NCBI RefSeq assembly: GCF_004359215.1
Contig: NC_090628.1
Location: forward strand, 1,187,634-1,223,881
Reading direction: 5' to 3'
Source: Bremia lactucae
Taxonomy: Eukaryota; Oomycota; Peronosporomycetes; Peronosporales; Peronosporaceae
DNA length: 36,248 bases
The notes beneath the pieces were generated by a model. It saw nothing but the letters and a program-made list of their open reading frames with translations, was not told the DNA's origin and did not search any database. This document shows positions 1-36,248 of this stretch, piece by piece (position 1 is the stretch's first letter; every line of letters starts with the position of its first letter). The position numbers were made by a program, and so were the translations under genes.

Positions 1-902
1 TTAATGATCTAGTGCTACTCTCTACGGTAAACTTACCTAAGCGATTAGTCACTAATGTGGGTAGCAGTAAACTACTACCCAAGTTCATTGGGCCTTTCCG
101 TGTACTGCATCGAAGAGGCAATGCGTACACAATAGAATTGCCACGTAGGATGCGAACGCATCCTACGTTTTACGTTGGTCGGCTCCGCCCGTACCATCAG
201 TACGCGGCTTCTTCCGAGGACGGATTTGACCACCCTTTTCAAGAATCCCCAAAAGATTCTTGTGACCGCGAACCAGGTTCTCATGTTGAACCTAAAGTTT
301 CTCATGCTTGTTCCGAAGATCCTCGAAACTACGATGAGCTGATGACAGCTCATCGCGAACAGCATGATAGTTCCGCTCGTACATCAACATGGAGTACGCA
401 CTCTTCGAACGGTTTTCCAACAGCTCGATATGGTGAGTCTGCACCGTCTGCTCAAACGAGCGATGCTTGCCGCGCTCGTATTTAAATCCCTCCTCCAAAT
501 CATGGAGGAAGTGATCGATTTTGTCGATCGTCGACATTAGATCCGAAATACGGTTCGGATCTAATTTTCTCTCCTCCACCACAACCATTGGTGGATTCCC
601 ACGGTGGTCAACTTTTCCTTGTGGAACGTATCCAGAACCACCGTGATGTGAAGGGGTAGCGAACGAGTTATCTTGTTCACTGGCGTGGTTACACACCTTT
701 ACATGACAGCTGGGAGCCTCGTTCCCAGCTAATTGCTGACGTTGAGGGCTTCGTCCGTCAGTATGACGACCCATCCGATAATTCAGAAGGCCCATCGGAA
801 AACACGCGCCCCTGGCGCTTGCAAAACGATTGCAAAACGTCAATCGCATCCCGCATCTCAATAGAGATGCGAGCCCTTCCCCAGGGCGAAGAAAGGGAAT
901 AA
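1..902 (+). pseudogene. Gypsy G1 pol 3' end: integrase C-terminus and chromodomain (broken)
   Basis: The first part (to 485) contains the post-core integrase module with SKLLPKFIGPF, GNAYTIELP and HPTFYVGRLRPYHQY, typical of gypsy pol. A stop ends this frame at 485. The chromodomain follows in another frame at about 600-775 (FLVERIQNHRDVKG, stop, then YLVHWRGY and HDSWEPRSQL). Chromodomains in gypsy elements bind modified histones and steer integration. A TAG at about 658 interrupts the chromodomain where the G3 copy reads through. The + frame stays open to about 902 and overlaps the antisense ORF tail-to-tail. It is a pseudogene, and its catalytic residues lie left of the window. Confidence 0.85.
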
Positions 903-1919
903 ACATCCCCTTTTACCCTCTTCGAGTTGTCAACACAACACGGACAGGGATCACCCCACTTGAGGCATGGAAGCCCAGCCTCACGTGACAGCCGATGCAA
1001 TTTATACTTTGCACCGGTTGGAGTTCGTTTCTCAAACTTAACGCGGTTCGCGTTAAGTTGTTGAAGCCAGGCTTCGCGTCCAATGTCTTTGACATTGCGA
1101 ATGGACGCGCTCCAGGCTTGTATAAGCGAGACTTTATCTCGCTTATTGTTGCCACTAAACCATCGATGCTTAAGAAAAGCATCGAGATAAAATCTTCCTC
1201 AGCGCGAAAGTTCTTTGCGCTGGGATCAAGGCCATGTAGCTTTTCGCAACAAATAAGATATATTTATTGTGAGAAGTAGTTTCTCCAGACATGCTATTGA
1301 TCAGCCGTTCTGACAAAAGCCACGGCTTCTTTACATGGGCGAGATGAGACAGTTTAGTGTCTTCACTCCTCTGAGTGGTACCCACTGAAGCAGGGGTACC
1401 ACAAGAACATTTATAACGATGGCTTACGCCATCGTCATCACCTTGCACAGAAACAGGTGCAGGTGACCATACGGGAGACAGAACGGGCGATGAGGGATCA
1501 TCCTCATCGTCGGAACCAAATAGACTATTAACTCGTTTATCAGAATGAGCCCTCTCATTCGAAGGCTCATAGTCAGCCGCCTGACGTCTATCAGGCGACT
1601 GTTCTACTCTCCCCGAGTCGGCAATTTTGTCCGATTCGCATTCGTAGTCGACCTCCAAAGAGGGGTTGTATTCACGTGGTGAATCACCACGTGCACCCGC
1701 AACATCTAGTGTTGCGCGAGTGGAAGATACTACGGCAGACATTATGTCTGCCGCAAGAGATAGCAATGCGTCACCCGCGGCTGCACGAACCGCAGCCGAA
1801 GGCGCAGCACTGTCGTCACCCCGCATGAGTTGATCCTTCATGCGATGGAATTTGAAATGATGGATCTGACCAATCAACGTCGTTTTAAAAATGAAGTGGT
1901 CACATAGCGACCACTCCAT
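758..1919 (-). pseudogene. Antisense ORF of gypsy G1 (unknown function, two frameshifts)
   Basis: On the strand opposite pol, an ORF starts at 1919 (MEWSL...) close to the polypurine tract and runs to 758, converging with the chromodomain. It has an Ala-rich N-terminal third (AAVRAAAGDALLSLAAD), an acidic/Ser/Pro middle (SLFGSDDEDDPSSP), a block around KKPWLLSERL and GETT, and a C-terminal Cys-rich stretch (GLPCLKWGDPCPCC) that could bind metal. One-base deletions near 1245 and 1190, relative to the G4 copy, split it into three frames. Homologues occupy the same place in G3 (30661-31896) and G4 (35398-36248). I do not recognise the family. Gag-like, accessory or domesticated origins are all possible. 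Confidence 0.7.
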
Positions 1920-1947
1920 TCAATGACAGTCAGACTAATTGTCGTTT

Positions 1948-1959
1948 AAGGAGAAGGGG
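1948..1959 (+). other. Polypurine tract of gypsy G1
   Basis: AAGGAGAAGGGG lies three bases before the LTR start (TGTAACGGGG at 1963). In LTR elements this primes plus-strand DNA synthesis, so it shows that G1 runs left to right. Confidence 0.75.
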
Positions 1960-1962
1960 TGA

Positions 1963-2837
1963 TGTAACGGGGTGTATCGTTACATGAGATCAACACTTAA
2001 AGGTTGTTAATTAATATATTGCCTAGAAGGTAGATAATATTTGGAAAACATTACTTTATGTTGTAATGTTCAAAGATCTTATCCATAAATAGGTATAGAC
2101 TATTATATCAATTTATCCCGCAGACTAATCATCTGTAGATGTAAACAGAAGAGAGATACAGATAAGATAAGATAAGATTTCAATTGCATGTTTAGTATTA
2201 GTTTATAATTAAGTTAGAGTTAACAGATAGAAAGAAGAGATACTTATTAATATTAATACAGTTTTCATTTTACCCTCTTCAATCTAGTTACCTTAAAGAG
2301 AAGTCTTCCTCTGCATGTACTAGTGTACGTGAAATAACGTAAGACACCACTCGCAACTGAAGCAGTGTGAAGTAGACTTGTCCTAAATGTTGAAGATTGA
2401 TGTGTTCATCGAAAGTGTTGCGCTTGCATATGCGTGTATAGGGGATCGTATCACAATTTTATACGGAAAATTTGAATACTCAGTAATGGTGTGTTGTGGC
2501 TCAGTCGGGTAAAGCATTGTAGTGCATCCCACTAGTCACAGGTTCGATACCAGGTGACGATTGAAAGTAAAACCTTCGGAAACTGGCGTTTGGGGGCCAC
2601 CAGCATTACCGCCAAATAGTTACGTTCCCAATTTACGGTAGTCCACAGATGTGGAAAACGTGGCTTAGCGAAGGATAGGAAAGAATTAACGGTAGGATAA
2701 AGTTAACGGTAACATTGAGATAAACGCAAAATATAACTTACTTGCCGGTTTGCAATCTCGACCGTAAGCCCATCTTCAAACTCATAGCGTTACGTAATGC
2801 AACATTAAAGTATTACAAGTCGTAGTGCCCAGTTACA
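1963..2837 (+). repeat. 3' LTR of gypsy G1, interrupted by a nested solo LTR
   Basis: The LTR runs 1963-2387 and resumes at 2805-2837. Without the insert and the duplicated 5 bp it is 453 bp, the same as the intact G4 LTR (34904-35356). It begins TGTAACGGGG and ends GTTACA. The first 22 bases form an imperfect foldback (TGTAACG...CGTTACA) that is also present in G3 and G4. The body is AT-rich. Confidence 0.85.
2388..2804 (+). repeat. Solo LTR, family S1 copy 1, with embedded tRNA-like module
   Basis: A 417-bp element starts TGTTGAAG and ends GCAACA, flanked by CTAAA (2383-2387) and TTAAA (2805-2809), a 5-bp target duplication with one change. It sits inside the G1 LTR, whose sequence resumes after it. 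At about 2492-2560 it contains a tRNA-like stretch: GTGGCTCAGTCGGGTAAAGC resembles a D-arm/A box and GGTTCGATACC is a B box. Two more copies (33311-33742 and 34232-34685) have the same ends and the same internal module. Confidence 0.82.
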
Positions 2838-2990
2838 CCTGTGGACTTTTCAGTCAATACTTCGGAGTCGTCATTGCGAGTGGCCAAAGCGAGCCTAACG
2901 AATGTGGTAATACCTTACGCTTTCAATTTAACGCCGATTTTGGGACTTAAGCATTACTTCTTAAGCTCAATCAAGACGGGTGAAAGATTT

Positions 2991-3071
2991 GTCAGCTGTG
3001 GGATTTGAACCCACGCGTTCGAGAACATTACGACCTGAACGTAACCCCTTAGACCACTCGGGCAAACTGAC
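2991..3071 (-). tRNA. tRNA-Leu (anticodon CAG), copy 1
   Basis: The minus strand folds as an 81-nt type II tRNA: acceptor GTCAGTT pairs with AGCTGAC, the D-arm is GCCCGAGTGGTCTAAGGGG, the anticodon stem TTACG/CGTAA encloses loop TTCAGGT (anticodon CAG), a long variable arm follows, and the T-arm is GTGGGTTCAAATCCCAC. It would read CUG leucine codons. The body is identical in all three copies in this window although the flanks have diverged. No clear T4 terminator follows directly. Confidence 0.93.
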
Positions 3072-3456
3072 TTGTTGATGCAAAGGATTCCTTTTGTTAT
3101 ATATATTTAATTTATATTCTCAAACTGCTCAAACTTTTCTTCCACCATCTTCCGCAAGATGGATATGACAGCTGTATTATAGCTCCTATTGCTTTGCCAC
3201 CTCCCTCCGAAGCCTCTCGGCCGTTCGTTAGATTCCGCTGCGTGTCTCTATCGTGATCCAGCCTGCCCTGCTGAGACGCCCAGGTCGCTCTGCTATCCTA
3301 GGTACCTCCGGATCTCCGCTGAACGCCATGGAAGCCTCAAATCCTGACGTGTCATCGGCTCTAGCGGCACCATCGTTAGCGACGAGCCGATAAACGCGCC
3401 ACACGATGCTCCTCTCTTACAATGACTGTGCCGAGTGATGCTGGCCCACCGACTCG

Positions 3457-7324: not shown

Positions 7325-7740
7325 TCCTGAACGAGACGGATTACTGATTCTCGAGTCAGCAGAAGTTCCTCTGCTGACTCATTCGTTTTGTCTTTTTTTC
7401 AGTACGCTTTGTGCGCACTGCCATGAAATCTTTCTCATCTTCGATGTCGATTTCTTCGACATCACTCGCATCGTTGTTAACTTCGACGCGTGATGAGCAT
7501 GAGCCAAAAATGGTTTTGTTTGTGCGAATCCCCTCCTTTTAAACTAGAGAATCCTCTAATTGGATGGGTATGCGAGGATGGCGTAAGCCATTCACGAAGA
7601 ACAGTGTATGCTTTGTAGACGCATGCACCATATCATTGATGGCAAATTCGACCATCGGTAAAAACTCGCTCCAATTCGGATTCGTTTGCCTTTGATGCTT
7701 TCGTGTAATGGCTCCGCAAATTAGGCAAAGTTCTTACAGA
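7325..7740 (-). pseudogene. G1-type integrase fragment inserted in gypsy G2
   Basis: The minus strand encodes FLPMVEFAINDMVHASTKHT followed by FVNGLRHPR. This matches the integrase end of the G1/G3 family (29510-29620) and not G2. It lies between G2 RT and RNase H, where it does not belong. Like G1/G3 it carries tight foldbacks (arms 7353-7363/7370-7380, 11 bp; arms 7443-7450/7456-7463, 8 bp), unlike the G2 sequence around it. No target duplication was found, so the mechanism is unclear. Confidence 0.68.
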
Positions 7741-18034: not shown

Positions 18035-18115
18035 GTCAGTTTGCCCGAGTGGTCTAAGGGGTTACGTTCAGGTCGTAATGTTCTCGAACGCGTGGGTTCA
18101 AATCCCACAGCTGAC
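18035..18115 (+). tRNA. tRNA-Leu (anticodon CAG), copy 2
   Basis: Its 81-nt sequence is identical to the copies at 2991-3071 and 25228-25308, with all stems intact and anticodon CAG. The upstream flank is AT-rich (TATATATAAC), as in the other copies. Confidence 0.93.
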
Positions 18116-18820
18116 AAATCTTTCATCCGTCTTGATTGAGTTCAAGAAGTAATGCTTAAGTCCCAAAATAGGCGTTAAATTGAAAGCGTAAGGTATTACC
18201 ACATTCGTTAGGCTCGCTTTGGCCACTCGCAATGGCGACTTCGATGCATTTACTGAAAAGACCACCGGAAACTCCTCATGTACTTGTGTAAGGGACCCAC
18301 GTTTGGCTATTGTTGAGGTATATGTACATACCTCCCTGGAATCGATTCGTCCAAATGCGTGATGTTATGCTCGGTATTAATGCGTGGAATATGTCCGTCG
18401 TACGTATGGGATATGTCAGCGTAGCATTCAGCGTCAGTGTTATGGCTAGTCATCGGTGTGTCAAAATAACGAGATATTACAGCAACCTTGGGCAAACCCG
18501 AGTCAAGAATTCGAACAATTTAATTACACCATACAAATTATAGTCAGTCGCACAATGCATCTTGTATTACATTATTTTTAATTTGATACGCAAATAATTA
18601 AAATTATGGCATAAATGAAGTAATAGCAAGGTTGGTGCTATTCCCCGATGTATATCTTTATTTCGTATGTATCCTTAAGAGCAGCAAAATATTAATTAAA
18701 GATATCGACCGGATTTGAAGAATTCTATTTATGTGAGACTGGATCTTAAAGAGGTACAGAATAGAAGGAAAAATGAATTGTTTTGCTTAATATATCCTGT
18801 AATCTAAAAGTAATATCGTA

Positions 18821-18892: not shown

Positions 18893-19198
18893 TCCATCAC
18901 TTTATAATTGAAACAAGACGCAACAGACGCCAAACACTGTAATCGTGGATAGACGTTCAACCTTCTTGTGCATATTTACCGCAACAAACATTTACGGTGA
19001 CCAAATATCCGAACAAATTCATTACATTACAGCTGAAATTTTATGCTTGGCGTTTTAACGTTGTAGAGTTGCTTGACTGCGTCCTTAATTTGACTACTAT
19101 TATCATTTGATTCTCAAGAAACAAGACATTACTGATCCAGCAACATCAAAACAAGTGTGGGCGGGCGCTACTATACCAGTACCACAATACTTAAGCAT

Positions 19199-19404
19199 AT
19201 CCAAGCACAGTAAGGAAGCGGCTTGACCATCTTCTCTCACGTGCAGAGAGGTAGTTGGTGGGCGCCTAAGCGACAGCACTCAACTAATTAAGAACCTGAC
19301 ACATCCAAGCACAGTAAGGAAGCGGCTTGGCCATCTTCTCTCACGTGCAGAGAGGTAGTTGGTGGGCGTCTAAGCGACAGCACTTAACTAATTAAGAACC
19401 TGTC
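19199..19404. repeat. Tandem repeat, 104-bp period, two copies
   Basis: ATCCAAGCACAGTAAGGAAG... starts at 19199 and again at 19303, with only a few differences. Each unit contains the foldback CTCTC-ACGTGCA-GAGAG. Confidence 0.88.
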
Positions 19405-24522: not shown

Positions 24523-25227
24523 TACGATATTTTTTTTAGATTACAGGATATATTAAGCAAAACAATTCATTTTTCCTTCTATTCTGTACCTCTTTAAGAT
24601 CCAGTCTCACATAAATAGAATTCTTCAAATCCGGTCGATATCTTTAATTAATATTTTGCTGCTCTTAAGGATACATACGAAATAAAGATATACATCGGGG
24701 AATAGCACCAACCTTGCTATTACTTCATTTATGCCATAATTTTAATTATTTGCGTATCAAATTAAAAATAATGTAATACAAGATGCATTGTGCGACTGAC
24801 TATAATTTGTATGGTGTAATTAAATTGTTCGAATTCTTGACTCGGGTTTGCCCAAGGTTGCTGTAATATCTCGTTATTTTGATATACCGATGACTAGCCA
24901 TAACACTGACGCTGAATGCTACGCTGACATATCCCATACGTACGACGGACATATTCCACGCATTAATACCGAGCATAACGTCACGCATTTGGACGAATCG
25001 ATTCCAGGGAGGTATGTACATGTACCTCAACAATAGCCATACGTGGGTCCCTTACACAAGTACATGAGGAGTTTTCGGTGTTCTTTTCAGTCAATGCATC
25101 GGAGTCGCCATTGCGAGTGGCCAAAGCGAGCCTAACGAATGTGGTAGTACCTTACGCTTTCAATTTAACGCCGATTTTGGGACTTAAGCATTACTTCTTA
25201 AGCTCAATCAAGACGGGTGAAAGATTT

Positions 25228-25308
25228 GTCAGCTGTGGGATTTGAACCCACGCGTTCGAGAACATTACGACCTGAACGTAACCCCTTAGACCACTCGGGC
25301 AAACTGAC
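25228..25308 (-). tRNA. tRNA-Leu (anticodon CAG), copy 3
   Basis: 81 nt, identical to the other two copies, with intact cloverleaf and long variable arm. Confidence 0.93.
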
Positions 25309-25693
25309 TTGTTGATGCAAAGGATTCCTTTTGTTATATATATTTAATTTATATTCTCAAACTGCTCAAACTTTTCTTCCACCATCTTCCGCAAGATGGA
25401 TATGACAGCTGTATTATAGCTCCTATTGCTTTGCCACCTCCCTCCGAAGCCTCTCGGCCGTTCGTTAGATTCCGCTGCGTGTCTCTATCGTGATCCAGCC
25501 TGCCCTGCTGAGACGCCCAGGTCGCTCTGCTATCCTAGGTACCTCCGGATCTCCGCTGAACGCCATGGAAGCCTCAAATCCTGACGTGTCATCGGCTCTA
25601 GCGGCACCATCGTTAGCGACGAGCCGATAAACGCGCCACACGATGCTCCTCTCTTACAATGACTGTGCCGAGTGATGCTGGCCCACCGACTCG

Positions 25694-26598: not shown

Positions 26599-26664
26599 TG
26601 TAACGGGGTATCCCGTTACATAAGTATTATCTTTTACAAAAGGAATAATAAGTATTGTTTCCTA

Positions 26665-28020
26665 GGATTGGGACGTAAAATGTTCAATCCGAGTCTTCTC
26701 ATCGAGGACACTTTCGTCCATCGATGAGCTAGTGAGAATCCGATCGTTCTCAGGAAACAGTTCTGCCGAATAAATATCGGCCACGTACTTGTCACTGAAT
26801 ACAACTACGCAGATCTGCTTGACTTTGCCACTACGCAGATCACGCAAGAACCATTTCGGTTCTAGCGTTGGCAATTAAGTTATCTTCGACGTTAACTTCG
26901 AGGGCGCTGATAGATCAAGTGTATAAGCGCCTACATTTAACCCGTTGTTTACTAAGACATTAATTGTCTCGGTTTCTTCTTTGGAACTTATTTCCAAAGG
27001 TACCTTGGAACGTTTGACCACAAGTTTCCGGGGACTTATTCCAAAGGATTTTTTTAGGAGTATCCTCCTTAACTGCCTCTAGCTGTGGTTGCGCTACCAC
27101 AGCGAGATCCTCAACGATCGACTCTCCAGTCGTAGGATTTTCGCACTGTTTTTTTATAGACTGGCGCTTCAAACTTTATTGGATTTTGGTTTTTTAGCTG
27201 GCATCCTTCGTAACACTCAACTTATTCGAGTGGTGGAATTTCGACGCTTTCTGTGCTTGTACAGAGCCGTCGGTAACTATGTCCACGTCACAATGGTGGA
27301 CCTTCGACGCTGCCTGTGCTGGTGCACGGCCGTCGGGATCTACTCCAATGTGTTGGGTATTCACACTGAACACGCGTGCCCTGCTCCAAATCCAGGAGCT
27401 CGGCTCGAGCCTGAATTCGGCACTTGGCGGCTCTAATGTTTGTCTGAGCCGGGTCTTAAAGACCTCATATGATCCAAGACTAATAAATCGTGAAGCTTGA
27501 GCCCCAAGGCCCAAGATTTGGCATGTCCGGCTAAGTTGGACATGCCAAATTTCACTTTCGTCGCACCACCACTGATATGACGAGCTTCTATGGCGTCGTC
27601 TAACTCGACGAGCCATCTCAAAAGGGGGTCGCCTTCGACTGCCTTAAGCTTAGGTATTTCTATCTTTAAGCGTTCGGGTCGACGCGGAAGCATCGGCTTA
27701 TTAGCAGCATATACATGATGCTGTCTCAACAGCTCCAATTGTTGAGCACCCTAATTTCTCAACACCTATGCATGTTGAGAGCCTTGCTGGTGAAGCAAGG
27801 TTACTTTCTCTTGGGCCCCGTCGAGTTCGTGTTGAATGAACTTGGCTGTAGCCGCATGCTGTTCATCTCTGCCCAGAGTGTACAGCATAGCGCCAACGGC
27901 TGGCCCGCCTACAACCGAACTCATTTGTTTGACCACTCTCCATTCGAGATCACTCATTTGAGTAAACCTCTCACACGTTGCGTGATAACCTTCTTGATGG
28001 GCTTGGAAGCTCCCTCATTC
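26665..28020 (-). pseudogene. Inverted gag-protease segment of gypsy G3
   Basis: The minus strand carries gag: 27957-27766 (MSDLEWRVVKQMSS...), 27738-27433 (RLKIEIPKLKAVEGDPLLRW and HAKSWALGLKLHD), then in another frame FKTRLRQTLEPPSAEF and a Lys/Arg-rich tail (27172-26960). The protease-RT linker follows at 26874-26665 (PKWFLRDLRSGKVKQI, EKTRIEHFTSQS). No retropepsin DSG is present, so that part is lost. Read on the minus strand the segment ends exactly where the + strand RT at 28021 should continue, so a single inversion explains the layout. Confidence 0.8.
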
Positions 28021-28600
28021 TGGGAGTCTTTGAAGATAAACCCTTTATATGACGATTTGAAGGAATTTCAGGATGTCTTTCCTGAATCACTACCGTGCAA
28101 GTTGCCTAAGGATAAAGGCACTCGACACGAAATCGACCAAAATACAGGTTCGAAATACTGTGTCATGAAGCAATGGCCATTGCCTCGTAAACAAGTAATA
28201 GCGATCGACAAATTTTTTGCCGAACGCTTAGCAGCGGGCCATGTGAGGGGATTGACTTCCCCACATAGCTCAACGACCTTCTGTGTGCATAAAGGAACAG
28301 GAGGATGGCGGATACTGCATACATTCAATAAACTGAACGCTGCAACAGTACCGGCTCAAACGCCGAAACCACGAAGAGACGTAATCATTATAGGTATGTT
28401 AAAGAGTACTACCTCTTCGTCAATGGATCTAATGGATGGAATCTATCAGATCTTTATGCCTGAGCAGAATATTTCGCTTACAGCAGTGAGCACCCCAAAC
28501 ACTATGATATGGGAGTGGCTAGTCATGCCACAGGGGCAGTACTAAGCCCCTGTGACATTTAACGGATGTGTTATCAATCTGTTGAGATCGGTGCGGGATT
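28021..28600 (+). pseudogene. Gypsy G3 reverse transcriptase N-terminal half
   Basis: From 28021 the + strand reads WESLKINPLYDDLKEFQDVF, LPKDKGTRHEID, QWPLPRKQVIAIDKFFAERL, WRILHTFNKLNAA, SSMDLMDGIYQI (palm motif A Asp) and EWLVMPQGQY, then a stop at 28543. FNGCVINLLRSVRDF follows. The catalytic YxDD box and the thumb are missing: the sequence jumps at about 28600 to the end of RNase H. Confidence 0.82.
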
Positions 28601-30908
28601 TTGAAATAAACAAGGACGACTTGACGTCGTCGCTGATGCCCTTTCGCGCCGGCACGATGTTAAGCCGGCTGCGCAAATAAACAGTGAGGATAAGGCCACT
28701 GTTTCAACAATAAGTGTTCCTTCGTCAACATTACTCGACGATGTCAGAAGAAGCTTATCAAGAAGATAAGGCTCTTAAAGGATTGATAAATTACCATAAG
28801 AAAGCATCCCAACAACCCTTAAAGGGATTGTCGAAATTGTATTGATCTTCAACAGATCGATATACAACACGCAATGGTTTATTGTATTATACAGCCATTT
28901 CTAGCGACACGCCTCGTGTCGTTATCCGTAATCATAATGATTTGCGATTAAGCATCATATATGAGTACCACGATGCACCAATAAGCGGTCGTCGTGGATG
29001 TGAGAAGACTTATCTCACAGTAAGTCACGACTTCTACTAGCCACGCCAGTATGAGTTTGTCTGCAAGTACATACGTGCTTGCGAAGTTTGTCAGCGGGTA
29101 AAATCCAGCGCTTCGTTCCGTGCTCCGTTATAACCTCTGCCTGTTCCGGCAGAGTGTTGGCAGTCCATATCTATGGACTTCGTATTCGGATCCTCCGTAG
29201 ACACCCACAAGAATATTGGTATTCTTGTTTTTGTTGACCATTTAAGCAAGATGGTACATCTTGCTGCCGCTGTGCTCGCGCTTTTATTGACACGATATTT
29301 CGACTCGATGGGTTACCCCGTGAACTGGTCTCAGATCATGACCCTGGATTCACGGCGGAATTTTGGCAAACAGTGTTCAAATCACTTGGAAAACAGTTAA
29401 AAATGTCAACTTATGATCATCCCGAAACAAAAGATCAGACGGAGCGTGCAAACCGTATTAACGAAGAGACACTTCGCGGATACGTCCACTCTTTTAAGAG
29501 TTGAAGCGAGTTCTTGCCGATGGTAGAATTTGCCATCATAAATTCAGTGCATATTTCTACAAAGCATACACCGTTTTGTGAATGGCTTACGCCACCCACA
29601 TAGACTTACCCTATTTGAGAGTAGCTCTTATTTAAGGGTGAGGGACTCGCTCGAGTAAAGAGCCTTTTAACTCTTGCTCACCACGTATCAGCCCAAGGGG
29701 ATACCAATGTAAAGCTAACTAACACTGAAGTAGACAACGATGCTGAAAGACTCAGCATCAAAAACCACAATATGAATGGGAATGATAATGCTCTCAATTA
29801 ACAAGAGATTAATATATCCGCAGTGCGAGCCGATCGCACTGAGAACAAACATAAAACCGAGTCAGCAGGTGATTTCCTGCTGGGTAGAAAGGTTGTGGCC
29901 CGTTTCGTACAGGATTCCATCGCTGATGCGGTGTACCGACAGAAATAGAACTCTGACAAAAATTGAAGAGCAAACATACTTTCATTTAAAATTAATGACC
30001 CAGTCCTACTGGGTGCGGTAAATTTGCCACAACACGTAGTGACGAATGTAGGCAATAATAAATTACTGCCCAGGTATATCGGCCCGTTTCGTGTATTACA
30101 TCGCCAAGGCAATGCATACACGATCAAGCTGCCTCGTAGGATGCGTACGCATCCTATGTTTTGTGTTGGACCTCTCCGGCTGTACCATCATTACGAGGAT
30201 TCTTCCGATTCCAGATCACACCGAAACGGTCAAGGGCATCAGCCAAAGCCTGATGGTTCCGAGCCAAAGACTTATTGTCTCGGGACAGGTTCTGACCCTC
30301 TTAAACTAGACGATCCACTTTCATTCAAGGAAAACGTTTCTGACGAGCTGTCAACAGCTCGTTTTGAAGGGACTGATGTGGCCTTTCGTTCGCCAGTTGA
30401 TTAGTCGCAATCTGCGCGCAGCTTTCAACTGGTTACGAGAAAACACCTCGCTAACTCGCGACGATAGGATAGCTCGTGATCAAGATTCTCCCTTAAATAA
30501 TAAAGGGTGTGATCCAAACCACGATGTTGAATCGGGCTCGTCAACGAGACGAACCCAATCTTTCCTCTTCCTCGACATCCATTGAGGGATTCAGGTGGTG
30601 AGAAGCGCTTTCTTGTTGTAAGTTTCTTGAACTACCGTAAAGCAAAGGGGGTTCGAACGATTAATCTCGATTGTTGGCGAGGGTATTCACCCTCGCATGA
30701 TAGTTGGGAACCTCGTTCCCGACTAATGTTGGATGTTCTGGGTCTCGTCTTGCACTACGACGAGACCCATCCCCCTCGGCAGAAGGTCCATCGGAGAACG
30801 AGCGCTTCCCGCACTCGTAAAAGAATTGGAGGTTCTCGATCCCTTGACGCATCTCGTCAGAGACGGAAGTCCTCCAATGGGGATCTTTCAGAGAATATGC
30901 TTCCTTAG
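28601..30908 (+). pseudogene. Gypsy G3 RNase H tail, integrase and chromodomain (broken)
   Basis: VADALSRRHDV (about 28630) ends RNase H. The integrase zinc-binding domain lies at about 28965-29105 (YHDAPISGRRG, VSHDFY, CEVCQRV). The core starts SMDFVFGS (29170), continues IGILVFVDHLSKMVHLA, and is frameshifted around 29400. The C-terminal module (30024-30200: VGNNKLLPRYIGPFRVLHRQ, GNAYTIKLPRRM) and a chromodomain (about 30610-30770: LDCWRGYSPSHDSWEPRSRL) follow. Between 29400 and 30020 only remnants are readable (FVNGLRHPH near 29580). Confidence 0.8.
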
Positions 30909-31896
30909 GGGCGTGACCTGCACACTTAAAACAGCAGGGGCATGAAAACCACCAGGAGAGGCAAGGAATCCCTGTCTGTCTAGACAAACGGTGCAACTTA
31001 TAGCGTGCACCGACTACGGTCCGTTTCTCAAACGGCTCATGAAAAACGTTCAGCTTGTCTAGCCAGACCTTACGGCTTAAGTTTTGCTAATTCTGTAAAA
31101 AGGCTGTCCAAGCGTGAAACAAAGGTTTGCATCCTTTGCTCATTTGCAAGTGTCGGTAAAATGCATCGATGAAGAAATTCGTTTCGTCCTTAGCAGGCTT
31201 GTGAAGCCCGGATGAGATGAGTCGAATAAAGGAATATGATATTGATCGGTGGTCATACCAGACCAACGAATGAGGTTTCTCTTAGAGGGTAACCAAGGCC
31301 TTTTTAGGAGCAAACCGTAGCGTATTGTGGTCCCTCTCCTGCTGGTTTGTGTTACCGTTAACGTTAGCGTGACCTGGGAGCGATCCCTACAATCACTCTT
31401 TTCCTGGTGATGCAAACTAGCACCACCAGCAGCACTCTTCCCGTCACGATCACTGAGTTCCTGGTGACGCATACTAACGCCACTAGACTGATCATGCTCA
31501 AGGAGTCATCATCAGATGACTTCCCACCAAAGAGGTCCGACGAATTAAACAACCTCGTCATCACCTCTTTGATAGTCACGTTAGAACCCAAAATTATAAC
31601 GGAATCGGCCCCGGATGATCCGGCGGCCTTCTCAGTCGCCACTGAGTCGGGCGATGCAGGTGACTTGGACCAGCCACGTACAATTGGTGTAGCAGGTGAC
31701 TCGTCCCCGTCATCTGCAATGTCATGAGAAGATGACATACCCAGTCACCTCCAATGGGAGTAGGAGGTGGCATATGCCCCGCACTAGACTCATTAGCGTC
31801 TACGGAAACAATTTCCTTACTGACAGCTACACTGATCCGTGCAGCTGCTAGCTTAGCGGCTTCGCGACCGAAGTGCACAGACTTGTTTGTCGCCAC
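30661..31896 (-). pseudogene. Antisense ORF of gypsy G3 (unknown function, frameshifted)
   Basis: The minus strand starts at 31896 (MATNKSVHFGREAAKLAAAR), has an acidic/Ser stretch with NSSDLFGGKSSDDDS, then KRPWLPSKR, and ends with MHRLSRQTGIPCLSWWFSCP then CC and KEAYSLKDPHW (30996-30661). It aligns in order with the G1 and G4 antisense ORFs (SLFGSDDEDD, KKPWLL, HRLSREAGLPCLKW...CPCC). The N-terminus has diverged strongly. It overlaps the chromodomain frame by about 250 bp. Function unknown. Confidence 0.68.
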
Positions 31897-32058
31897 TTGA
31901 TTCTGGTCAAAATCAAGAATGCAAATAAATTGGTGTTTTGATTTAAATCAAAATGCAAGTAAATCGGTATTTTGATAAGAACCAATAAAGCTAATTACAG
32001 GAAAAGACTTATAATCTTTCCTGTCACCCTACATCAATCACTATAGTGACTGTCAGTT

Positions 32059-32068
32059 GGGGGGGGGG
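32059..32068 (+). other. Polypurine tract of gypsy G3
   Basis: Ten consecutive G precede TAC and the LTR start (TGTAACGGGG at 32072), confirming + orientation. Confidence 0.7.
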
Positions 32069-32071
32069 TAC

Positions 32072-32505
32072 TGTAACGGGGTGTCTCGTAACATAAGTAT
32101 TATTTCCTATACGAGGAACGATAAATATTATTTTCTATGAAAGGAAATATATAAAGGAGTGCAAAGTTATTATCTTTATTAATTTTGACCTTAATAGTAC
32201 CAATAATACCAACTTTGTTATTATTGATGCAATAAGATATTAGCTGTGTTGATTGGTTGATTTAAGTCCAAATCAACCCCGCCAATCGTTTCAAGACACG
32301 ATTGCGCGGTGTGCGAGGAGGCGTCATACTTAGTAAGTATGACGCCTCATCGCTCAGGGTCTTTAAATACCAAAAGTTGAATTACCTTTTGGTATTTAAA
32401 GACCCTTAGCACCCAAGAAACTTTCCTATGTACTCTTGTGTACGTGAAGTTTCGAGGCACCCTACCTACTCTGTAATCAGTGTAAGGTTAAATAGTACTG
32501 AACAG
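32072..32505 (+). repeat. 3' LTR of gypsy G3, truncated at its end
   Basis: It starts TGTAACGGGG and runs to about AGTACTGAACAG, where copia G begins. It holds two very strong foldbacks: 32318-32332 with 32334-32348 (15-bp perfect arms, 1-nt centre) and 32356-32376 with 32386-32406 (21-bp perfect arms, 9-nt loop). Confidence 0.82.
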
Positions 32506-34839: not shown

Positions 34840-34903
34840 AAATTAATAACAATAATTTCTGTAAAAGTATGAACCTTTTATTGACGAATACAGCGGTCCC
34901 GTT

Positions 34904-35356
34904 TGTAACGGGGCATTATGACTTGTACTGTTTCAGTACAAGTCCACTTCGCACTGCTTCAGTTGCAAGTGGTGCCCTACGTTAATTGACGTACACTGTA
35001 CGTGCAGAGGAAGACTTCTCTTAAGGTAGTTAGCTTAAGAGGGTAAAATGAAAACTGTATTAAATATTATTAAGTGTCTCTTGTTCTATCTTTGTAAATG
35101 CTAACTTAATTATAATCTAATACTAAACATGTAAATGAATTCTCATCTCTATCTTATCTGTAACTCTCTCTTTGATTACTCCTACAGCTGATAGTCTGCG
35201 GAATAAATAGGTATAATGGTCTATGCTTATTTATGGATAAGAATTCTGAATATTACTATATAAAGTAATATCCTCCAAATATTATCTACCTTTTAGATAA
35301 TATATTAATTGACAACCATTAAGTGTTAATTTCATGTAACGATACATCCCGTTACA
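34904..35356 (-). repeat. 3' LTR of gypsy G4 (intact, 453 bp)
   Basis: On minus it starts TGTAACGGGA and ends CCCGTTACA. It has an 11-bp foldback GACTTGTACTG/CAGTACAAGTC at 34920-34930 and 34934-34944. It is the best reference LTR for the family in this window. Confidence 0.87.
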
Positions 35357-35359
35357 TCG

Positions 35360-35369
35360 CCCCTCCCTT
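35360..35369 (-). other. Polypurine tract of gypsy G4
   Basis: On the minus strand AAGGGAGGGG lies just before the LTR start, as in G1. Confidence 0.72.
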
Positions 35370-35397
35370 AAACGACAATCACTCTGAATGTCATTGG

Positions 35398-36248
35398 ATG
35401 GAGTGGTCGCTATGTGACCACTTAATTCTTAAAACGATGTTGATTGGTCAGATCCATCATTTTAAATTCCATCGCATGAAGGATCAACTCATGCGGGGTG
35501 ACGACAGTGCTGCGCCTTCGGCTGCGGTTCGTGCAGCCGCGGGTGACGCATTGCTATCTCTTGCGGCAGACGGAATGTCTGCCGTAGTGTCTTCCACTCG
35601 CACAACACTAGATGTTGCCAGTGCACGTGGTGATTCACCACGTGAATACGACCCCTCTTTGGAGGTCGGCTACGAATGCGAGTCGGATGAAGTGGCCGAC
35701 TCGGGGAGAATGGAACAGTCGCCTGATATACGTCAGGCGGCTGACTATGAGCCTTTGAATGAGAGGGCTCATTCTGATAGACGAGTGAACAGTCTATTTG
35801 GATCCGACGATGAGGATGACCCCTCATCGCCCGTACGATCTCCCATACGGTCACCTGCACGTGTCTCTGTGCAAGGTGACGACGATGGCGTAAGCCATCG
35901 TAAGAAAAGTTTTTGTGGTACCTCTGCTTCAGTGGGTACCACTTAGGGGAGTGAAGACAATAAAATGTCCCATCTTGCCCCTGAAAAGAAGCCGTGGCTT
36001 TTGCCAGAACGACTTATCAATAGCTTGTCTGGAGAAACTACTCCTCACAATAAATATCCCTTATTTATTGCGACAAAGCTACATGAGCTTGATCCCAGCG
36101 CGAAGAACTTTCGCGCTGAGGAAGATTTCTATCTCGATGCTTTTCTTAAGCATCGATGGTTTAGTGGCAACAATAAGCGAGATAAAGTCTCGCTTATGCA
36201 AGCTTGGAGTGCGTTCATTCGCAATGTCAAAGACATTGGACGCGAAGC
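35398..36248 (+). pseudogene. Antisense ORF of gypsy G4 (one nonsense stop, runs off window)
   Basis: The likely start is MEWSL at 35398, matching G1; the open frame itself extends further upstream, to 35323 inside the LTR. It encodes the same Ala-rich, then acidic/Ser/Pro protein as G1. One TAG at 35944-35946 interrupts it where G1 has CAG; after it the same frame continues to the window end through KKPWLLPERLINSLSGETT, FIATKLHELDPSAKNFRAEE and FLKHRWFSGNNKRDKVSLMQ. Apart from that stop the frame is clean for about 280 codons. It may still have been coding until recently. Function unknown. Confidence 0.72.

What the first reader, a model, noticed from the sequence alone, without database searches (positions are those of the whole stretch)
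26599..32505. Gypsy family G1/G3/G4 is saturated with perfect short foldbacks, in coding and LTR sequence
Reading by eye, near-adjacent inverted repeats with 7-21 bp perfect arms occur every few dozen bases. Examples in G3: 27516-27528/27538-27550 (13 bp), 27082-27089/27096-27103, 28529-28537/28546-28554, 29162-29169/29172-29179, 29207-29215/29220-29228, 29245-29252/29258-29265, palindrome 30137-30156, 30677-30684/30689-30696, 32318-32332/32334-32348 (15 bp), 32356-32376/32386-32406 (21 bp). An 8-bp perfect arm pair with a loop up to 10 nt is expected about once in several kb by chance. Protein motifs are still readable, so codon choice seems bent toward foldbacks. Possible causes are selection for structured genomic RNA or a replication process that makes palindromes.
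Basis: seen in the sequence. Interest (0 to 1): 0.9.

Follow-up and report, generated by a model that had tools for sequence, protein, structure and literature searches.

The report
Hairpin-saturated gypsy retrotransposon family
A family of jumping genes in what is likely a downy-mildew genome is spelled so that a young copy folds back into a short hairpin about every 75 letters, even inside its protein genes; the pairing is likely kept by selection, and would help keep its RNA single-stranded and out of reach of the host's RNA silencing.

Summary
All 10 quoted foldbacks are exact. Perfect arms of 7 bp or more with loops up to 10 nt number 36 in G3 against 3.0 in shuffles, 26 against 1.5 in window 1-2000 (G1) and 16 against 0.5 in G4; the rest of the window has far fewer. 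Fifty of the window's 56 arms of 8 bp or more lie in these copies. Codon-preserving shuffles reach the counts in 0-3 of 300 trials. Young copies hold 11-17 hairpins per kb, against 2-4 in RNA phages MS2 and Qbeta.

Hairpins belong to the replicating lineage: inserted copies decay without upkeep. Between young and old subfamilies (mostly 67-73% identical in pol), 209 of 284 stem pairs still pair and 26 of 38 double changes are compensatory, against 294 of 699 in control pairs. Both strands fold equally well.

Best reading: long-term selection for pervasive local folding of element RNA, likely on both strands, which would keep sense and antisense RNA from annealing. Templated hairpin correction during reverse transcription remains a rival. 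No expression data exist here.

The parts
1..1962 (+). G1: 3' part of a young family copy (pol end to start of 3' LTR), 25 perfect hairpins with arms >=7 bp
   Evidence: 27% of bases in perfect arms >=6 bp against 3% in shuffles
3..485 (+). G1 integrase C-terminal ORF, 5 hairpins with arms >=7 bp inside it
   Evidence: Pfam SH3_Tf2-1, E 3e-15; synonymous shuffles 0 of 300 reach 5
292..1919 (-). Antisense ORFs (1170-1919, 758-1198, 292-912) between integrase and 3' LTR, hairpin-dense
   Evidence: protein relatives; one of them (P0003) matches both the first ORF and the second (82% over 77 aa)
143..168 (.). 12-bp hairpin in integrase coding sequence; 11 of 12 pairs unchanged in the old subfamily plurality
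332..355 (.). 10-bp hairpin; 7 pairs unchanged, 1 compensatory, 2 lost in the old subfamily plurality
708..730 (.). 8-bp hairpin, 7 of 8 pairs unchanged and 1 compensatory in the old subfamily plurality
1963..2440 (+). G1 3' LTR (right end inferred), not enriched in structure (mean z -0.61)
   Evidence: LTR start motif
26599..32505 (+). G3: older, decayed family copy with 36 perfect hairpins (arms >=7 bp)
26660..27369 (-). Segment of G3 inverted relative to the copy in L016
27670..28545 (+). ORF of G3 containing a reverse transcriptase fragment (named from its homologue in L016)
   Evidence: the homologous L016 stretch matches Ty3 RT structures; no Pfam match of its own
29967..30404 (+). G3 integrase C-terminal ORF with SH3_Tf2-1 domain
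   Evidence: E 3.5e-12
32073..32505 (+). G3 3' LTR with 5 perfect hairpins (arms up to 21 bp), mean z -5.87
32318..32348 (.). 15-bp arms, 1-nt loop, in the G3 LTR
32356..32406 (.). 21-bp arms, 9-nt loop, in the G3 LTR
34900..36248 (-). G4: 3' part of a second young copy, pol sense on the minus strand (LTR about 34900-35352)
   Evidence: 92% identical to G1 over 892 nt
35323..35946 (+). G4 antisense ORF, 11 hairpins with arms >=7 bp

Best explanation
This is a Ty3/gypsy-type retrotransposon family whose sequence, coding parts included, is packed with short perfect stem-loops, and this pairing is likely maintained by natural selection on the element's RNA, which would keep its sense and antisense transcripts folded and single-stranded. 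Shown: the excess of hairpins over dinucleotide and codon-preserving shuffles, concentration in this family within the window, loops peaking at 4-6 nt, retention and compensation of stems between two subfamilies, equal folding strength on both strands, low unpaired G+C, and decay without upkeep after insertion. Inferred: that selection (not a copying process) keeps the stems, that RNA is the molecule concerned, that both strands are transcribed, and that the benefit is less annealing of sense to antisense RNA and hence less host RNA silencing. It would work like the structured genomes of RNA phages, in which strong local folding is reported to prevent dead-end double-stranded RNA.
For: Mean z of 150-nt windows is -4.1/-4.0 (G1, +/-), -4.7/-4.6 (G4) and -2.3 to -3.1 (G3), against +0.2 to -1.0 in 11 other window regions. 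Codon-preserving shuffles. Loop spectrum: 54 hairpins at 4 nt against 3.4 in shuffles, under twofold beyond 14 nt, chance beyond 60 nt. In the pol piece, 209 of 284 young stem pairs are Watson-Crick in the old subfamily plurality (57-86 of about 280 with slid partners); 26 of 38 double changes keep pairing against 294 of 699 control Watson-Crick pairs (p=0.002), compensatory versus single changes p=1.7e-7, and 20 of 26 hairpins keep at least 70% of pairs (no control was run for this last fraction). After insertion there is no upkeep: double private changes keep pairing in 28 of 49 stem cases and 164 of 360 controls. Both strands are alike: z difference -0.04+-0.07 over 345 windows of old copies. 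Unpaired G+C per nt is 0.117/0.126 on the two strands of the young pol piece, as in Qbeta (0.117/0.126), below its shuffles (0.159/0.152); G1 has 0.144/0.125 (shuffles 0.167/0.147) and G3 0.139/0.136 (0.152/0.147); the two copia stretches are near their shuffles. Fewer unpaired G and C lowers dsRNA formation in Qbeta replicase experiments (PMC6913131, part of abstract and passages). In P. infestans, small RNAs map in both orientations along two Gypsy elements (PMC3522703, passages).
Against: No transcription or small-RNA data exist here, so antisense transcription along pol is untested. Strand symmetry and the lack of a G-U excess (GU:AC at single mismatches 60:103 on the pol-sense strand, against 13:8 in the two phages; 29:31 by aligned helices) also fit a DNA-level copying process. 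The phage controls show no significant strand difference (-0.38+-0.30, -0.25+-0.22), so symmetry is weak evidence. Low unpaired G+C follows from any hairpin excess, so it does not by itself point to a function. With ascertainment removed, stem conservation among young copies is modest: ratio 0.33-0.89 in 8 comparisons, 3 of them at p<0.05. In the 3' part the compensation test is borderline (23 of 43 against 480 of 1253, p=0.055). Short 7-12 bp stems might only delay annealing. G1's LTR is not structured.
Confidence: 0.5

Rival explanations
1. Hairpin-templated correction during reverse transcription (quasipalindrome template switching) makes and repairs perfect inverted repeats at each replication cycle, without any benefit from folding.
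For: Perfect Watson-Crick arms with no strand preference and no G-U excess; some stems replaced almost wholly on both arms, e.g. G1 1122-1146 (read by eye); very long perfect arms in the non-coding G3 LTR.
Against: The window's copia stretches, which also replicate by reverse transcription, have 1 and 2 hairpins of >=7 bp against 2.6 and 1.6 expected. Many compensatory differences sit singly in otherwise unchanged stems (read by eye; clustering was not counted). Copies about 92-95% identical show only 0-3 double compensatory pairs per comparison, six comparisons. Loops are G+C-poor and stems G+C-rich, as expected for selection on stability.
Confidence: 0.25
2. Selection for structure, but for Gag binding: the hairpins are many dispersed packaging signals on the sense genomic RNA.
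For: Stem-loops are short and spread along the readable element (median centre spacing 52 nt in G1); the loop G depletion is on the pol-sense strand (G minus C -0.066+-0.028 over 85 old-family hairpins, background -0.015).
Against: No shared loop motif was evident in the loops listed (read by eye; no motif search run). No Gag was identified and none was searched for. No sense-strand preference in folding.
Confidence: 0.12
3. A DNA-level role (cruciforms, chromatin or recombination) keeps the inverted repeats.
For: Strand symmetry and palindromes with loops of 0-2 nt above chance (53 against 9.0).
Against: Loops of 4-6 nt are preferred over 0-2; genomic copies show no upkeep after insertion, which a role in the inserted DNA would predict.
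Confidence: 0.08
4. Chance, base composition or assembly artefact.
For: None found.
Against: Shuffles and codon-preserving shuffles; the same hairpins recur at the same places in many copies.
Confidence: 0.01

Closest known systems
[quoted passage not shown]
   Same: Folding excess spread along coding sequence.
   Different: Here in an LTR retrotransposon family, made of short perfect hairpins, equally strong on both strands.
Leviviricetes genomes (MS2, Qbeta)
   Same: Similar shortage of unpaired G+C on both strands and negative z of similar size.
   Different: About 3 to 9 times more perfect hairpins per kb in G1 and G4, 1.5 to 3 times in G3; the element replicates through DNA.
Ty3 genomic RNA structure (PMC11381356, passages)
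   Same: Ty3/gypsy genomic RNA with folded regions.
   Different: In Ty3 the well-folded core covers about 19% of the RNA in the passages read; saturation by perfect short hairpins was not mentioned in those passages.
Retand and other plant gypsy elements with antisense ORFs (PMC11963269, abstract and passages)
   Same: Antisense ORFs between pol and 3' LTR.
   Different: No TRP28 or other Pfam domain found in the ORFs here; the words hairpin, inverted repeat and secondary structure do not occur in that paper's main text.
Quasipalindrome-associated template switching (PMC7202029, search listing only)
   Same: Would yield perfect inverted repeats.
   Different: The listing describes it in E. 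coli; whether it can saturate a mobile element is not addressed there.

Membership tests
Ty3/gypsy LTR retrotransposon | Ty3-type reverse transcriptase | tested here: met
   L016:4804-5232 matches Ty3 RT structures 4ol8 (E 5e-8) and 7q5b (2e-7); Pfam RVT_1 only below its cut-off
Ty3/gypsy LTR retrotransposon | Integrase downstream of RT | tested here: met
   SH3_Tf2-1 domain of the integrase end, downstream of the RT fragment in G3; catalytic core not matched in Pfam (one stretch tried)
Ty3/gypsy LTR retrotransposon | Two LTRs, primer site, polypurine tract | tested here: inconclusive
   Same LTR start at 26600 and 32073 and a G-run before 32073; 5' end of G3 rearranged; flanks of G1 and G4 withheld; primer site not tested
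Ty3/gypsy LTR retrotransposon | gag gene | not tested
   none identified; no targeted search made
GORS | Folding energy beyond shuffled controls | tested here: met
GORS | Spread over the whole genome | tested here: inconclusive
   Dense in the readable pol and 3' parts; the 5' half of young copies was not seen; G1 LTR not structured
GORS | Structure forms in the RNA | not testable with these tools
   needs chemical probing
Retand-type elements | Antisense ORF between pol and 3' LTR | tested here: met
Retand-type elements | TRP28 domain in the antisense ORF | tested here: not met
   no Pfam match
Quasipalindrome correction | Arms rewritten together in recent copies | tested here: inconclusive
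   0-3 double compensatory pairs in each of six young comparisons; too few changes to decide

The most novel reading that the evidence does not exclude
A retrotransposon lineage has evolved an RNA-phage-like, both-strand hairpin armour along its readable length, denser than in MS2 or Qbeta, which stops its sense and antisense RNAs from forming the double-stranded RNA that host silencing needs, and this helped it spread through the genome.
Probability: 0.33. Interest if true: 0.88.

Novelty: new variant of a known kind. Interest (0 to 1): 0.74.

Why it matters
Genome-wide folding is a known trait of some RNA viruses and phages; its presence at higher hairpin density in a gypsy family would show that DNA-borne mobile elements can evolve it too. 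It offers a test of whether folding protects mobile elements from RNA silencing, and the many copies, young and old, let the decay and upkeep of each stem be measured. If the rival is right, it would reveal a reverse transcriptase that writes palindromes.

Tried and rejected
Chance and composition: rejected by dinucleotide and codon shuffles. Overlapping antisense genes as the cause: rejected, since the 1555 nt of the L035 pol piece that have no antisense frame of 100 aa or more still hold 16 of its hairpins with arms >=7 bp (listed). Hairpin upkeep in inserted copies: not supported. An early apparent strong depletion of changes in stems of young copies was inflated, because stems were defined in one of the two sequences compared; with stems taken from a third copy it is modest, and pairs of old copies show none (stem 0.179, loop 0.216, flank 0.156). 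An early hint of antisense-strand preference (GU:AC 1:8 in G1+G4) was not borne out by aligned helices or z-scores. The 20 copies are not all independent: L016-L019, L027 and L028 are one segmental duplication and were reduced to L016 in the pair counts; L010 and L013 are near-copies, both kept, L010 dropped from then on; L021, L026, L012 and G1 were left out. The comparison with the young lineage used 7 old rows (and second part) and 8 (and first part), the others lacking a long enough match. Viral contigs: none of 5 candidate stretches encodes a relative. A structure prediction of the antisense protein gave mean pLDDT 48, too low to use. Literature on hairpin-dense LTR elements: nothing found in the listings (open-licence papers only).
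Full report
What was checked. Counting every perfect inverted repeat with arms of at least 7 bp and a loop of at most 10 nt, G3 has 36 against 3.0 expected from dinucleotide shuffles (4.6 with another seed), window 1-2000 (G1) has 26 against 1.5, and 35300-36248 (G4) has 16 against 0.5; the two copia regions have 1 and 2 against 2.6 and 1.6. Four other regions have 3-10 against 1.2-4.4. Of 56 arms of 8 bp or more in the window, 50 are inside the three family copies, which make up 9.7 of 36.2 kb. In G1, 27% of all bases lie in perfect arms of 6 bp or more, against 3% in shuffles, and hairpin centres are on average 76 nt apart.

What carries it. The family is of the Ty3/gypsy kind: a copy's RT stretch matches Ty3 RT structures and the integrase end carries an SH3_Tf2-1 domain. 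The window lies in a 116-Mb genome of 220 contigs in which the first look finds 2449-3451 candidate places for three pieces of the family; only 40 were scored per search. Among the 120 of 163 listed protein relatives of the integrase end, those with an organism name are from Peronospora matthiolae and Hyaloperonospora arabidopsidis, so the host is likely a downy mildew; the species is not given. G1 and G4 are a young subfamily (92% identical to each other): 19 other places share one identical score at 97% identity to G1 over 460 nt. G3 and most fetched copies are an older, star-like burst: eight rows are 82-86% identical pairwise, the other old rows 73-88%. G1 and G3 are 54% identical in the 3' part; the young pol piece and the old copies are mostly 67-73% identical, one (L026) 56%. 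Between integrase and 3' LTR the family has antisense ORFs with 20 protein relatives; no Pfam match was found.

Codon choice. Shuffling synonymous codons within each ORF, which keeps the protein and the codon counts, gave as many hairpins as observed (arms of 7 bp or more) in 0, 0, 1, 0, 0, 0, 3 and 1 of 300 shuffles for the eight family ORFs. At longer arms the decayed G3 ORF 27670-28542 is not exceptional (1 at 8 bp or more, reached by 69 of 300). The seven control ORFs had 0-1 hairpins and no excess at 7 bp; one of them has a single 9-bp hairpin reached by 11 of 300 shuffles. Six open frames in three further young pieces gave 0 of 300 each at 7 bp; these frames overlap and the pieces are homologous.

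Shape of the hairpins. Over 54 kb of element segments (53 segments, two near-copies among them), loops peak at 4-6 nt (54, 37 and 40 against 3.4, 2.6 and 2.8), are above chance but rarer at 0-2 nt, and the excess falls under twofold beyond 14 nt and to chance beyond 60 nt. Stems are G+C-richer and loops poorer than the whole. Compared with MS2 (2.0 per kb) and Qbeta (4.0 per kb), G1 has 12.7, G4 16.9 and G3 6.1 perfect hairpins per kb. Three other young pieces have 11.1-14.1 per kb, and a non-element stretch of L016 has 1.0. Mean folding z of 150-nt windows is near -4.0 to -4.7 in G1 and G4 on both strands, and between +0.2 and -1.0 in 11 other regions.

Time course. In the old burst, private changes in stem columns mostly break pairs (388 break, 58 make, 57 neither; no control was run for the 58), and their rate in stems (0.067) is near that in loops (0.075) and elsewhere (0.086). 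Double private changes keep pairing in 28 of 49 stem cases and 164 of 360 control cases. So inserted copies simply decay, and the hairpins belong to the replicating lineage. Between the young and the old lineage the stems persist: in the pol piece 209 of 284 testable stem pairs are still Watson-Crick in the old plurality, against 57-86 of about 280 with slid partners. Of 38 pairs changed on both sides, 26 are compensatory, against 294 of 699 in control Watson-Crick pairs with the same spacing (p=0.002), and 20 of 26 hairpins keep at least 70% of pairs. In the faster-evolving 3' part 123 of 215 stem pairs persist (42-64 with slid partners), 23 of 43 double changes are compensatory against 480 of 1253 (p=0.055), and 9 of 19 hairpins are kept; some hairpins there look replaced by others at or near the same place, e.g. 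G1 240-262 and 1122-1146 (read by eye). Among young copies, with stems defined in a third copy, stems change at 0.33-0.89 of the rate of loops and flanks, three of eight comparisons at p<0.05.

Which strand. In an RNA under selection on one strand only, G-U pairs should be tolerated more than A-C on that strand. Here they are not: single mismatches within stems are 60 G-U to 103 A-C on the pol-sense strand (the phages have 13 to 8), aligned helices show 29 to 31, and z-scores of the two strands differ by -0.04+-0.07 over 345 windows of old copies. RNA phages lean to the plus strand, but not significantly. Unpaired G+C per nt is 0.117 and 0.126 on the two strands of the young pol piece, as in Qbeta (0.117, 0.126) and close to MS2 (0.121, 0.132), below its shuffles (0.159, 0.152). 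G1 (0.144, 0.125) and G3 (0.139, 0.136) are also below their shuffles, by less; the copia stretches are near theirs. Any hairpin excess would lower this number, so it fits the model without proving it. Work with Qbeta replicase reports that unpaired G and C promote annealing of the two strands into dead-end double-stranded RNA and that evolved RNAs lose them (PMC6913131, part of abstract and passages).

Mechanism. I commit to selection for pervasive local folding of the element's RNA on both strands, which would keep sense and antisense transcripts from annealing and so reduce feeding of the host's RNA silencing. Shown are the structure excess, its codon cost, its persistence with compensation, its loss after insertion, and its strand symmetry. 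Not shown are transcription of both strands, folding in the cell, and any benefit. In P. infestans, small RNAs map to both strands along two Gypsy elements (PMC3522703, passages), which makes antisense transcription plausible in oomycetes. The main rival is that reverse transcription through hairpins rewrites one arm from the other; it explains perfect pairing and symmetry, but not why the copia stretches are nearly spared or why many compensatory differences sit singly in kept stems (read by eye).

Novelty. Genome-scale RNA structure is known in RNA viruses (PMC9784701, passages), and Ty3 genomic RNA has been probed (PMC11381356, passages). I found no report of an LTR retrotransposon saturated with perfect short hairpins in the listings of my searches, which cover open-licence papers only. 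I rate it a new variant of a known kind.

Noticed in passing
window 292-1919 (-), 35323-35946 (+): Antisense ORFs between integrase and 3' LTR with 20 protein relatives at 48-83% identity and no Pfam domain found; P0003 matches two of them in one frame. A structure prediction was of low confidence.
   Followed up: partly
L016-L019, L027, L028: A block of up to about 9.5-10 kb holding an FHA-PP2C phosphatase gene and an old copy of this gypsy family is repeated nearly identically (99.0-100%) in these six loci (shorter, 6.1 kb, in L018); further hits with the same score may be more copies.
   Followed up: partly
window 26660-27369: A 0.7-kb segment of G3 is inverted relative to the copy in L016.
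   Followed up: no
window 2841-3140 and 25078-25377; 18035-18116: A tRNA-Leu (cag) gene occurs three times with the same score, two of the copies in 98% identical 300-nt repeats.
   Followed up: no
window 19196-19403: Tandem duplication of a 104-nt unit, 95% identical.
   Followed up: no
window 7353-7380 and 7443-7463: Two perfect hairpins outside the named copies, near a family fragment at 7566-7673.
   Followed up: no
window 1963-2440 and 32073-32505: G1's LTR is unstructured while G3's LTR has the most negative mean z measured; unexplained.
   Followed up: no
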